Shown: positions 17,414 through 38,658 of the stretch, piece by piece
Position numbering within the stretch: the first letter of the stretch is position 1
How the letters are laid out: each line of letters opens with the position of its first letter
IMG/VR virus record: IMGVR_UViG_3300020119_000024
Coordinates: 1 to 38,981 of that record
Reading direction: 5' to 3' (one strand)
DNA length: 38,981 nucleotides
Source of the DNA: a virus
Translations under genes and position numbers: made by a program
The notes under the pieces: generated by a model
Databases searched by the model: none
Told to the model about the DNA's origin: nothing
The model's input: only the letters and a program-made list of their open reading frames with translations

Positions 17414-17781
17414 GCGCAGATCTTCTAGGTGATCATCTGGCGGCCGAAGAGATCGCCCATGAGGCCGAATACCGGTTTGGCGCCATCGCATCAGGTGGCG
17501 CCGGTAAGGGGCTTCGTAATCGGCTCAAGGAAGCAGGGCTAAAGGACTGGCGCGCAGACTTCCATATCATCGGGCATATGCTGCTGATTGAGGTTGAGGG
17601 AGGGGCATGGACTGGCGGACGGCACACTACGGGGGTCGGCTTTAACGCTGACCTAGCCAAATATGACGCCGCTATGCGCCTCGGCTATTCGGTCTACAGG
17701 TGCTCGCCAGAGATGGTAAAGAAAGGCCGCGCCATCGAAACCATAAAGCGGCTTATTGCATTGAAGTCTGCCGATCAGTAA
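17410..17781 (+). CDS. PD-(D/E)XK-type endonuclease
   Basis: 123 residues, TTG start at 17410 overlapping the upstream stop (TTGA). The core WRADFHIIGHMLLIEVEGGAW with GGRHTTGVGF, then a DLAKYDAAMRLGYSVYRCS helix-strand, matches small phage nucleases with Asp in RADF and Glu in IEVEGG as metal ligands. Family members lie at the end of replication/nin regions and may cut branched or damaged DNA. Last gene of the rightward early operon, directly before the gene-free structured region. Confidence 0.75.
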   Translation: MSADLLGDHLAAEEIAHEAEYRFGAIASGGAGKGLRNRLKEAGLKDWRADFHIIGHMLLIEVEGGAWTGGRHTTGVGFNADLAKYDAAMRLGYSVYRCSPEMVKKGRAIETIKRLIALKSADQ

Positions 17782-18062
17782 TATCGCTCAGGCAGGCAGT
17801 GTCCATTGGTCCGCTGGGTGTCGTTGCCTTACCTGCAAGCGGACTCGGAGCCGCTATTAAAAATTCCGAGGCCTACAGCGCCGGCACGCAGCAAGCGAGT
17901 ACAAGTTGCGTGCAACCAGTCAACCAGCGCCAAGCCGATGTGGCAAACAGGCCGCCACCAGCCCAGCAGACGCCGGGAATCGTCTTCACCAGACTGCTGA
18001 TTTGAAGGGATGAGAAAGCGCGATTAAGTTCGTTGCCCAACACGCCCGATACTGAGTCAGTA

Positions 18063-18176
18063 GCCTGATGCAGATGCGTGAATAGGCGGCTCTCTGGCCA
18101 GCAGTCAGGAATAGCGAACCTGATGCCACGTTAAGCTAAAGTCATGCCGGATTCGCACCGGCTATCTGCATCAGGC
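18063..18176 (+). ncRNA. Closed RNA domain with tRNA/tmRNA-like acceptor and T-arm geometry
   Basis: A perfect 13-bp stem pairs 18063-18075 with 18164-18176. One base inside its 3' strand lies a 5-bp stem with a 7-base loop, GCCGG-ATTCGCA-CCGGC (18146-18162), the size of a tRNA T-arm next to an acceptor stem. Further inside are CGTG/CACG (18077-18080/18127-18130) and GCA(G)TCAGG/CCTGATGC (18101-18109/18119-18126). The interior is too long and lacks a clear anticodon arm for an ordinary tRNA. Confidence 0.5.
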
Positions 18177-18276
18177 GTTCGGTGTCGGGAACCGACGGCA
18201 GGGAACGTGTCGATAACTCAGTTCTGAATTAAACCGGAAAGCCTCTCGAAGAAGCTCAAATCTTCGGCGCAATACT

Positions 18277-18300
18277 AAGCCCTCCATGTGAGGGCTTTTT
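18277..18300 (+). terminator. Intrinsic terminator ending the structured region
   Basis: AAGCCCTC (18277-18284)/GAGGGCTT (18290-18297), loop CATGT, T-tract to 18300. It would stop leader transcripts unless antiterminated. From here to the holin ATG at 18387 I see only a CCCAT/ATGGG hairpin (18339-18353) and a weak TAAGAT -10-like box at 18322; no convincing late promoter. Confidence 0.85.
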
Positions 18301-18386
18301 CATGCTCGCCCCAAAATAGTTTAAGATTTGATCTACAGCCCATGGAATATGGGACGCTGCCACGAAACACAGCACGGATCTGACAA

Positions 18387-18767
18387 ATGGCCGAGCCGAC
18401 GAGTTTAGTTGTTCCGCTGGTAGTTACTGGCGTAGGGGGAGGGGTTGCCATCGCGGCCGGCATAGACAGCAATGCTGTGGTTATGGCGTTTGCTGGCGCT
18501 GCGATGTTTTCGTTTGTATCAAGAGGGACGATTATTCCGGTACGAGTAGGATTGATGCTCTCGGCATGGATCTTTGGCTATTACGCCGGTCTAGAAATCG
18601 TTCAGCGAGAAATGTTTGGGTTCAGATCGCCGCCAGTACCGTCTTTCATAGCTTCATTTTTCTGTGTAGCTGTCTTTAAGGCGCTGCTGGCCATCTTCAA
18701 CGAGGACGGCAAAGCCTGGATACGCAAGAGGCTGGGCCTTTCAACAGAGGGTGCAGAGGATGATTGA
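18387..18767 (+). CDS. Holin (Phage_holin_8-like)
   Basis: 126 residues, starting MAEPTSLVVPLVVTGVGGGV, a start typical of Pseudomonas phage holins. Three to four hydrophobic spans: ~8-25, 28-46, 52-70 and 85-104, and a charged C-terminal tail (AWIRKRLGLSTEGAEDD). It should oligomerise in the inner membrane and time the release of the endolysin encoded two genes downstream. Overlaps the next gene by 8 bases. Confidence 0.8.
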   Translation: MAEPTSLVVPLVVTGVGGGVAIAAGIDSNAVVMAFAGAAMFSFVSRGTIIPVRVGLMLSAWIFGYYAGLEIVQREMFGFRSPPVPSFIASFFCVAVFKALLAIFNEDGKAWIRKRLGLSTEGAEDD

Positions 18768-25510: not shown

Positions 25511-25603
25511 TAAGCTTTAGTCGTGGCTAGGGCATGCAACCCGAACGGCGGATTCCTCACCGCCTGCCACGACCTCATGAGGACTCGACTAGAGGTGGTT
25601 GAT

Positions 25604-25965: not shown

Positions 25966-25988
25966 ATCTAACGCAGCGATAGGCCATC

Positions 25989-26106
25989 TATACTGCGCAC
26001 CAGTGCCGGAGGGCCGGCAAGCATAAGGCTGCACCTTGGAGCGGCTTCATGCCATCAGGCAGACCACCAAGGAAGGGAGCCCGGTTTCTTAGCCGGGCTT
26101 TCTTTT
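25989..26106 (+). ncRNA. Candidate ~105-nt small RNA with its own terminator
   Basis: A TATACT -10-like box (25989-25994; no good -35 visible) precedes a compact set of stems: TGCCGG-aggg-CCGGCA (26004-26019), CCTTGG/CCAAGG (26034-26039/26067-26072) enclosing TGCC-atca-GGCA (26050-26061), and finally AGCCCGG/CCGGGCT (26078-26084/26093-26099) followed by TTTCTTTT. There is no open reading frame of note. GGC-ttcat-GCC is an alternative inner pairing. A discrete small RNA starting near 26001 is inferred. Confidence 0.5.
26078..26106 (+). terminator. Intrinsic terminator before the moron
   Basis: Stem AGCCCGG/CCGGGCT with an 8-base loop, then TTTCTTTT. It ends transcription from the portal side or of the candidate small RNA, and overlaps the -35 of the moron promoter by two bases. 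Confidence 0.85.
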
Positions 26107-26132
26107 GCATTAAATTTGCGGTCTACTAATAT
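26105..26132 (+). promoter_or_regulatory. Moron promoter
   Basis: TTGCAT (26105-26110), 16-bp spacer, TAATAT (26127-26132), 35 bases before the ATG at 26167. A reasonable sigma70 promoter placed between a terminator and a single gene. Confidence 0.7.
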
Positions 26133-26166
26133 TCCTGTTACCGATCTACAAAACGAAGGAAGACCT

Positions 26167-26463
26167 ATGATGATCAAACGCTTCGCAACCTATCTCGGCA
26201 TGGCGCTCGCCATGTGCCTTGGTTCGTTCACGGCTCACGCTGCCGAACGCATCGCCTATGTCGCCGCATCCACGTTCGAAGTGGTTGGTTCGCACGCGGC
26301 ACAGTCCATGAAGCACGAACTGACGCTGAGTCAGTGGCGAACGGAAGGCCAGGCGAGCAATGAACCTGTCGCCTCCAACTTGATCGCATTGAGTAACCAC
26401 TTCGGCTTGGCCGGCGCAGCGCCGTTCGGCGTCCCTGACTGGGATAGCGGTTCCGCCGCATAA
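26167..26463 (+). CDS. Exported moron-type protein
   Basis: 98 residues. A strong Sec signal peptide: MIKRFATYLGMALAMCLGSF then TAHAA, with AHA-A as likely cleavage site near residue 26. The mature part (~72 residues) is RIAYVAASTFEVVGSHAAQS and onward; I recognise no family. It has its own promoter and terminator and sits between portal and scaffold genes, the definition of a moron. Expression independent of the late operon suggests a role in the host envelope, such as exclusion or virulence, by analogy only. Ribosome site GGAAG; start could be 26167 or 26170. Confidence 0.75.
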   Translation: MMIKRFATYLGMALAMCLGSFTAHAAERIAYVAASTFEVVGSHAAQSMKHELTLSQWRTEGQASNEPVASNLIALSNHFGLAGAAPFGVPDWDSGSAA

Positions 26464-26486
26464 AACATTGCCTGGGTGCATGACGC

Positions 26487-26517
26487 AAAAGCCCGCCTAT
26501 CACGGCGGGCTTTTCTT
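26487..26517 (+). terminator. Strong intrinsic terminator after the moron
   Basis: Perfect 11-bp stem AAAAGCCCGCC (26487-26497)/GGCGGGCTTTT (26504-26514), loop of 6, followed by CTTT. It works in both directions by sequence. Confidence 0.9.
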
Positions 26518-26547
26518 TGGCTCAAATAAAGACTTTCTGCTTGATTT

Positions 26548-26575
26548 TTGACCTGCACGCAAAGAGTGGTATTCT
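26548..26575 (+). promoter_or_regulatory. Promoter for scaffold and coat genes
   Basis: TTGACC (26548-26553), 16-bp spacer, TATTCT (26570-26575). It follows the moron terminator and re-initiates transcription for the head genes. A CCACTG-gagtt-CAGTGG hairpin (26613-26629) lies in the leader. Confidence 0.65.
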
Positions 26576-26654
26576 TTTATTTACTGAGGCGCACAGGTTA
26601 AACGCACTCTGACCACTGGAGTTCAGTGGGCCATCGTTACCAAGCGAGTAGAAA

Positions 26655-38097: not shown

Positions 38098-38658
38098 ATG
38101 GCAGACGAGAACGAAGTAAGGCTACCTTACGACTACTATCCTGACCCCACAAGGGGTCGGCCGGTATTCGAAGGATCTATCTATGTCGGCCAGCCCGACA
38201 CAGACCCTCAGGTTATCTCAAATCAGCTCCAGGTCACGGCGGTTCAGGAGGACGGTTCGGCAGTTCCGATTGCTCAGCCCATAAAGACCGGCGCGGGCGG
38301 CGTGCCGATGCTGAACGGTTCGCCTATTCAGCTTCAGGTAAGCGGTGAATACAGCATCAAGGTGCTTGATAAATATGGCGCCCAGGTCTATTACGCCGCA
38401 TCACTTGTTGCTGGCGTGACGCCTACGACGATCATCAGGACTCAGCTAGTCCCGCTGTCCATCGACCTGACTGACCGGTTCATAAACGCCTATCTGTTCA
38501 ACTCCAATACGAGTTGGACGGATTACTACAGCTCGCACAAACCGGTGATGGATTTGGGTCTTATAGGATCGGCGCCGTTTGAAATCGAGAACATCCCGAC
38601 ATCGCGCTTTGACCTTGCTCAAAACACATCAACCACTGACCTTGGAGAGCTTCCGTAA
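38098..38658 (+). CDS. Tailspike-type head-binding adaptor
   Basis: 186 residues from ATG 38098, with GGTGA 5 bases upstream; ATG 38086 is an alternative, and the TTG at 38005 has no ribosome site. Residues ~20-105 (FEGSIYVGQPDTDPQVISNQ, VQEDGSAVPIAQPI, GEYSIKVLDKYGAQVYYA) match the P22 tailspike head-binding domain (KIYIGQIDTDP...EDGS...YDANGSQVDYI). There is no beta-helix or endorhamnosidase part; ~80 residues of linker follow. It probably attaches to the gp10-like hub and links the fibre encoded next. Confidence 0.85.
   Translation: MADENEVRLPYDYYPDPTRGRPVFEGSIYVGQPDTDPQVISNQLQVTAVQEDGSAVPIAQPIKTGAGGVPMLNGSPIQLQVSGEYSIKVLDKYGAQVYYAASLVAGVTPTTIIRTQLVPLSIDLTDRFINAYLFNSNTSWTDYYSSHKPVMDLGLIGSAPFEIENIPTSRFDLAQNTSTTDLGELP

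What the first reader, a model, noticed from the sequence alone, without database searches (positions are those of the whole stretch)
17782..18300. Gene-free, inverted-repeat-dense region between early and lysis genes: candidate large structured phage RNA
In a genome whose genes otherwise overlap, about 520 bases carry no credible gene, yet hold at least eight strong stems in order and end in an intrinsic terminator. Lambda-type phages make only a short leader RNA (6S) from the late promoter at this map position. A longer, elaborately folded transcript here could be an antitermination element (a put-like or Q-target RNA), a regulatory RNA, or an ornate phage RNA comparable in kind to GOLLD or ROOL. 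I could not match it to a known family by eye and saw no obvious promoter.
Basis: partly seen in the sequence, partly recalled or inferred. Interest (0 to 1): 0.85.

Follow-up and report, generated by a model that had tools for sequence, protein, structure and literature searches.

The report
Phage RNA-cassette array with AbiF-antitoxin hairpin
The gene-free stretch just before this Pseudomonas-type phage's lysis genes is a row of small interchangeable RNA elements, the last of which copies the RNA antidote of a bacterial suicide toxin (AbiF) although the phage has no such toxin, so it probably disarms that bacterial defence during infection.

Summary
The stretch is non-coding and is an RNA locus, but it is a modular array of small RNA elements rather than one ornate RNA. 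From 5' to 3': a promoter-like element, a leader hairpin, M3, M3b, M4, M5, M6, M1, and an intrinsic terminator. M1 (18234-18267) is an abiF RNA, the RNA-antitoxin hairpin of AbiF toxins. In the window it scores below Rfam's cut-off, but it passes the cut-off in 11 relatives with the same kind of array. In bacteria the motif sits about 25 nt before an AbiF gene. None of 39 viral records carrying it, this one included, encodes AbiF. M5 (17990-18172) is a covarying kissing-loop RNA found in many phages, including P1 and PAJU2. It is absent from Rfam and resembles the prophage sRNA STnc100. Elements recur in different orders, with tRNA genes among them. A close relative swaps M3b for tRNA genes with nearly identical flanks. 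Best reading: a pR'-tR' (6S-like) transcription unit that carries RNA cassettes, one of them a stand-alone AbiF antitoxin that neutralises host AbiF. The array and the orphan state are shown; the decoy function is inferred. This extends known RNA mimicry (pseudo-ToxI, Racr) to AbiF and to mixed RNA arrays.

The parts
17756..17784 (+). promoter-like element TTGCAT-N17-TAATAT overlapping the stop of the upstream gene; inferred transcript start about 17791
   Evidence: TTG(N3)-N16..18-TANNNT in 9 of 9 array 5' ends vs 0.45% of shuffled segments (segments chosen by their leader). In window and L040 the sequence is identical for 98 nt from about 17778 on, although the upstream genes differ. Weak by the consensus scan.
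17779..17840 (+). M0: conserved array leader with hairpin GTCCGCT/AGCGGAC (17809-17815/17838-17844)
   Evidence: inverted repeat I9; related leaders in L016, L041, L032, L008, L050 by eye alignment
17841..17873 (+). M3: hairpin module GGACTCGGAG...TTCCGAGGCC
   Evidence: nhmmer family in window, L015, L027, L032, L040
17883..17913 (+). M3b: hairpin module GGCACGCAGCAAGCGAGTACAAGTTGCGTGC
   Evidence: in L010 and L027; replaced by tRNA genes in close relative L040
17921..17976 (+). M4: module starting CAACCAGCGCC, hairpin GTGGC/GCCAC (GCGGA/TCCGC in relatives)
   Evidence: 10 loci, alignment
17990..18172 (+). M5: three-way-junction RNA. Variable stem 17990-18000/18057-18067; closing helix 18067-18076/18163-18172; hairpin A 18105-18123 (loop holds GCGAA); hairpin B 18146-18162 (loop holds UUCGC); loops A and B complementary (kissing loop, inferred)
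   Evidence: covariance model R1, trained without the window: top hit in window 18067-18172, 31.2 bits, E 1.6e-5, next 0.31; covariation in family
18177..18212 (+). M6: double hairpin GTTCGGTGTCGGGAACCGACGGCAGGGAACGTGTCG
   Evidence: 7 loci with paired changes, alignment
18234..18267 (+). M1: abiF RNA (antitoxin-type) hairpin, outer stem CCGGA/UUCGG fully paired, core AAGCCUCUC...GCUCAAAUC
   Evidence: Rfam RF03085 28.3 bits (cut-off 37), E 9.4e-5 for the window; same element over cut-off in 11 relatives
18279..18300 (+). intrinsic terminator GCCCTC-CATGT-GAGGGC-TTTTT ending the array
   Evidence: sequence; inverted repeat I7; a terminator-like hairpin follows the array in most relatives with an abiF 3' end

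Best explanation
17756-18300 is one short transcription unit at the phage's late promoter-terminator position (the place of lambda pR'-tR', which yields 6S RNA). It carries a row of exchangeable RNA cassettes: hairpins M3, M3b, M4, M6, a kissing-loop RNA M5, and at the 3' end an abiF antitoxin RNA without its toxin. Proposed mechanism: soon after infection the unit is transcribed up to its terminator. The abiF hairpin, alone or cut from the array, binds host AbiF, the HEPN toxin of AbiF abortive-infection/type III toxin-antitoxin systems. It keeps AbiF neutralised after phage takeover stops the host from making its own RNA antitoxin, so the cell does not abort. The other cassettes, and the tRNA genes that replace them in relatives, are likely to serve other RNA-level needs of the phage, possibly other defences. 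Shown: array, module conservation and shuffling, abiF identity in relatives, structural selection on orphan copies, absence of AbiF in the viral records. Inferred: transcription, processing, binding to host AbiF, the benefit to the phage, and any function of the other modules.
For: (1) The abiF core with fully paired stem matches RF03085 (E 9.4e-5 for the window); the same element passes Rfam's cut-off in 11 relatives. (2) The core pattern occurs in 38 other viral contigs. None of 39 viral records encodes Abi_2 and 0 of 28 next ORFs is Abi_2. In cellular genomes 18 of 33 next ORFs are Abi_2, mostly about 25 nt downstream, as are 6 of 8 next ORFs tested beside Rfam abiF hits in Gammaproteobacteria. 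(3) Orphan viral copies keep their outer stem through 21 different arm pairs: 78% of pairs form vs 54% when arms are shuffled, 0 of 2000, so structure is selected without the toxin. (4) The abiF RNA RCd22 neutralises AbiF in trans by direct binding (PMC12373285), and a phage RNA antitoxin mimic that defeats a type III toxin is known (pseudo-ToxI, PMC3475682). (5) Array form. (6) M5 covariation: 13 of 25 pairs with two-sided changes, 0 of 500 shuffles. (7) Conserved promoter-like start in 9 of 9. (8) abiF hairpin then terminator a few nt on is the layout of RCd22, minus the toxin gene.
Against: No expression data. In the window itself abiF scores below Rfam's cut-off, because its stem and upper loop differ from the consensus. 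The host is unknown; the nearest named phage by terminase, AH02 (76%), infects Pseudomonas koreensis. AbiF homologues occur on Pseudomonas plasmids (15 records), but the one examined, P. cerasi, had no abiF RNA beside it, and the gammaproteobacterial abiF cores seen mostly read GCGCAC or similar, not GCUCAAAUC. So the exact cognate toxin in the host is not identified. The other modules have no known partner; calling the whole array anti-defence is extrapolation.
Confidence: 0.62

Rival explanations
1. The array is a cis-acting leader of the late transcript (put-, Q- or pause-type antitermination element or attenuator) and the modules, abiF included, act by shaping termination before the lysis genes.
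For: Position, conserved promoter-like start and terminator end; in PAJU2 the M5 element lies between a Q-like antiterminator gene and the lysis genes.
Against: Modules occur in other places (next to tRNA genes in P1 and KP591P1; beside the repressor in E. coli prophages; between gp8 and the scaffold gene of Aeromonas phage T7-Ah), and their order and content vary freely, unlike a cis control element. It does not explain the conserved abiF core sequence.
Confidence: 0.15
2. The modules are base-pairing sRNAs of the STnc100/Pas class that regulate host or phage mRNAs; the abiF resemblance is convergent or serves another protein.
For: M5 shares the STnc100 architecture (closing helix, hairpin A, hairpin B, complementary loops) and the STnc100 model hits a neighbouring element in P1; STnc100 and PasD are prophage sRNAs of common origin (PMC13192938); one STnc100 copy was seen by Northern blot (PMC5331693).
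Against: The abiF part carries the long conserved sequence and stem of the antitoxin family, not an arbitrary seed. No sRNA target was tested here.
Confidence: 0.15
3. Relic: a toxin-antitoxin locus passed through the phage lineage, lost its toxin, and the RNA remains as decaying sequence.
For: AbiF systems do occur in some phages (C. difficile phiC2 and others).
Against: Orphan copies occur in unrelated phages (Mycobacterium, Synechococcus, Arthrobacter, Aeromonas, Pseudomonas-type) and keep paired stems through changes; a relic would decay.
Confidence: 0.05

Closest known systems
abiF RNA (Rfam RF03085) / RCd22 antitoxin of the AbiF type III-like system of C. difficile
   Same: hairpin with conserved core AAGCCUCUC...GCUCAAAUC; terminator directly downstream
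   Different: no AbiF gene in the phage; single copy in a mixed array; below cut-off in the window (over it in relatives)
pseudo-ToxI of phage PhiTE (PMC3475682)
   Same: phage-encoded RNA mimic of a type III antitoxin, proposed here or shown there to defeat an abortive-infection toxin
   Different: different toxin family (AbiF/HEPN, not ToxN); here a complete, structure-conserved hairpin in many unrelated phages, not a degenerate repeat that must expand
Racr RNA anti-CRISPRs / solitary repeat units (PMC10651486)
   Same: solitary copy of a defence RNA carried by phages in intergenic sequence
   Different: mimics an antitoxin RNA, not a CRISPR repeat; embedded among other RNA cassettes and tRNA genes
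STnc100 (RF02076) and PasD prophage sRNAs
   Same: M5 has the same layout as STnc100: closing helix, hairpin A, variable middle, hairpin B, complementary loops
   Different: no STnc100 hit in the window; different loop sequences; variable 5' stem; homology inferred from architecture only
lambda 6S RNA (pR'-tR')
   Same: short promoter-to-terminator unit before the lysis genes
   Different: about 510 nt instead of about 194 nt (own knowledge) and filled with structured modules; Q dependence untested
GOLLD / ROOL ornate RNAs
   Same: large non-coding phage region with many stems
   Different: no Rfam match; separate swappable modules, not one fold

Membership tests
abiF RNA (RF03085) | covariance-model score at or above the curated cut-off (37 bits) | tested here: not met
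   window 28.3 bits; 11 relatives 39.1-47.9 bits
abiF RNA (RF03085) | conserved core and paired outer stem | tested here: met
   exact core AAGCCTCTCNNNGANGCTCAAATC, stem CCGGA/UUCGG 5 of 5 paired
abiF RNA (RF03085) | located upstream of an AbiF (Abi_2) gene | tested here: not met
   no Abi_2 in the window or in 38 other viral records
abiF RNA (RF03085) | binds and neutralises AbiF | not testable with these tools
   needs biochemistry; shown for RCd22 in PMC12373285
type III toxin-antitoxin locus | antitoxin RNA and toxin gene in one locus | tested here: not met
   RNA only
M5 kissing-loop phage RNA (defined here, model R1) | significant match to the covariance model | tested here: met
   E 1.6e-5, best in window by far
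M5 kissing-loop phage RNA (defined here, model R1) | complementary loops A and B | tested here: met
   family: GCUGAU/AUCAGC, 99.4% of cells paired, with GUCGAU/AUCGAC as a two-pair compensatory change; window GCGAA/UUCGC by reading 18105-18162
STnc100 (RF02076) | covariance-model match | tested here: not met
   no STnc100 hit in 17600-18500 up to E 10
GOLLD / ROOL | covariance-model match | tested here: not met
   no hit
lambda 6S / pR'-tR' unit | late promoter and terminator flanking a leader before lysis genes | tested here: inconclusive
   sequence elements present and conserved; no transcript data, Q dependence unknown

The most novel reading that the evidence does not exclude
Many phages of different hosts carry a recombining RNA-cassette locus in which stand-alone RNA mimics of several host defence systems (AbiF antitoxin being the first recognised) and tRNA genes are collected and exchanged, an RNA counterpart of anti-defence gene islands. 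M2 to M7 would then be decoys or antidotes for RNA-dependent defences not yet identified.
Probability: 0.35. Interest if true: 0.92.

Novelty: new variant of a known kind. Interest (0 to 1): 0.76.

Why it matters
RNA antidotes carried by phages are known from two cases (ToxI mimics, CRISPR-repeat mimics). A third, against AbiF, the family from which Cas13 is thought to have evolved, would show that phages widely use free RNA antitoxins. The array arrangement gives a place to look for more: each recurring module is a testable candidate for the RNA partner of a defence protein. M5, with covariation support, is missing from Rfam although matches to one version of it occur in about a fifth of complete E. 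coli genomes.

Tried and rejected
Protein-coding reading of 17700-18005: no family match, broken in L040. Single large RNA: rejected because modules shuffle and are swapped. Evidence from folding energy or inverted-repeat density alone: weak, not used as proof. asX2, SpF51, Phe/Trp leader and isrG weak Rfam hits: terminator-like or chance matches. DNA similarity of the whole region in GenBank phages: none at E 0.01. R1 search in 369 gammaproteobacterial genomes to find a cellular home of M5 next to a defence gene: one weak hit only. abiF RNA beside AbiF on plasmids: present in Legionella hackeliae, not in the P. cerasi, Pantoea or E. coli examples. A search of an E. coli chromosome for STnc100 copies was not possible because the record is not held.

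Full report
What was checked. The window is a 38,981-base viral record. Its terminase is 76% identical to that of Pseudomonas phage AH02 from P. koreensis, the nearest named phage. The stretch 17782-18386 has no supported gene and lies between a small phage gene (phrog_503) and two holins plus an endolysin. Inverted repeats are only slightly more frequent than in shuffled sequence and local folding energies are ordinary; the 529-nt fold has z -2.26.

The abiF element. A permissive Rfam scan of 17600-18500 gave one notable match: abiF RNA at 18234-18267, 28.3 bits, below the cut-off of 37. Searched as a single family the E-value for the window is 9.4e-5. The core AAGCCTCTCNNNGANGCTCAAATC is exact and the outer stem CCGGA/UUCGG is fully paired. 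The core pattern occurs in 38 other viral contigs. Eleven of 14 related loci that were scanned carry an abiF match over the cut-off.

The antitoxin without the toxin. None of the 39 viral records, the window included, has an Abi_2 gene, and none of 28 next ORFs downstream of viral copies is Abi_2. The same pattern in cellular genomes (42 stretches, mostly Bacteroidales) is followed by Abi_2 in 18 of 33 next ORFs, usually about 25 nt away. Next to Rfam abiF hits in Gammaproteobacteria, 6 of 8 next ORFs tested are Abi_2. GenBank phages with the core (Mycobacterium, Arthrobacter, Synechococcus, Aeromonas) come from different host genera than those with an AbiF gene (Streptococcus, Clostridioides, Lactococcus, Listeria and others). 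Orphan viral copies keep the outer stem: 21 different arm pairs, 78% of pairs formed against 54% with shuffled arms, 0 of 2000. The hairpin therefore appears to be selected in phages that lack the toxin.

The array. Aligned relatives show recurring modules in the same kind of position. Profiles built from them give the window the order M3-M3b-M4-M5-M6-M1, mostly 3 to 8 nt apart; the one 93-nt gap before M5 holds its variable stem. Other contigs have, for example, M1-M2-M3-M3b (L027), M3b-tRNA-tRNA-M1-M5 (L010), M1-M2-M5 (L041) and tRNA-M4-M7-M6-M1 (L039). In several other contigs the abiF element lies 8-26 nt from a tRNA gene (L003, L008, L011, L022, L024, L030). The closest relative, L040, is 95-98% identical on both sides but carries one ARAGORN tRNA-Ser and two further tRNA-like segments (by eye) where the window has M3b, and it has an extra M2 after abiF. 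This is cassette exchange between close relatives.

M5. An alignment of 26 elements from IMG/VR contigs and from phages P1, PAJU2, AH02, Bas77, KP591P1 and 24-32N supports a closing helix, two hairpins and a loop-loop pairing: 95.7% of cells paired, 13 of 25 pairs with changes on both sides, no shuffle of 500 as good. The loop-loop pairing changes from GCUGAU/AUCAGC to GUCGAU/AUCGAC in one aligned copy. A model trained without the window finds 18067-18172 at E 1.6e-5, with the next hit at 0.31. There the loops read GCGAA and UUCGC, again complementary (inference from the sequence). M5 is not in Rfam. The STnc100 model hits a neighbouring P1 element with the same layout and complementary loops GUGC/GCAC in the consensus, so M5 probably belongs with the STnc100/PasD prophage sRNAs described in PMC13192938; this is a resemblance, not a passed membership test. 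Matches to a coliphage version, mostly of its 5' third, occur in 1003 of 5426 complete E. coli genomes, for example between a repressor gene and yfdP.

Transcription. Nine of nine compared array 5' ends with the common leader carry TTG-N3-N16..18-TANNNT at the same place, against 0.45% of shuffled segments. In the window this is 17756-17784. Together with the terminator at 18279-18300 it makes a unit like lambda pR'-tR'. No expression data could be obtained.

How it most likely works. AbiF is an RNase-like (HEPN) toxin held in check by an abiF RNA that acts in trans by direct binding; breaking the stem abolishes this, while swapping stem bases with pairing kept does not (PMC12373285). A phage that supplies this RNA from its own genome would keep AbiF silent after host transcription fails, as PhiTE does against ToxN with pseudo-ToxI (PMC3475682) and as Racr RNAs do against CRISPR-Cas (PMC10651486). 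The remaining modules and tRNAs share the locus and its exchange, which suggests, without showing it, that they also serve the phage's RNA-level contest with the host.

Novelty. A single abiF RNA in a cyanophage was listed before without a tested function (PMC9964418). I found no report, in the papers searchable here, of orphan abiF RNAs as a phage strategy, of mixed RNA-cassette arrays, or of M5 as a family. The principle (RNA mimicry of defence RNAs) is known; the target, the breadth and the array are new.

Noticed in passing
window 25520-25583 (+): int-alpA RNA (RF02996), 42 bits, over the cut-off (35.8), just after the portal-protein gene, with no integrase or alpA gene recognised beside it by reading; also in relative G433 (the record of L052).
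   Followed up: partly
window 25966-26654: A second long, mostly gene-free stretch with strong folds (26026-26175, z -3.6) and terminator-like hairpins; weak ncS025 hit (28.9 bits, cut-off 46) at 26028-26107.
   Followed up: no
window 38401-38550: Lowest folding z-score (-4.2) of the whole window; not examined.
   Followed up: no
L069 1400-2350 (phage P1, OP279344): About four M5/STnc100-like elements in a row between tRNA-Asn/tRNA-Thr and tciA, in sequence largely without annotated genes.
   Followed up: partly
L084, L088, L092 and others: Five of 33 ORFs next to the abiF core in cellular genomes are RhuM family (PF13310) instead of Abi_2, a possible second partner of abiF-type RNA (which of the ORFs they are was not resolved).
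   Followed up: no
L022 1808-1886: Two abiF copies in tandem directly before a tRNA-Asn gene in a viral contig.
   Followed up: no
L062, L072, L075, L069, L074: The variable arm of M5 often contains a tRNA T-arm-like GGTTCGANTCC hairpin, as if tRNA pieces were built into it.
   Followed up: no
L027, L040, L041, L046, L047: Module M2 (GGUGAGUCUGGAGAAGUUCACC) has paired changes (GGUGA/UUCACC to GGCAA/UUUGCC) and sits next to abiF in most of its arrays; unidentified.
   Followed up: partly
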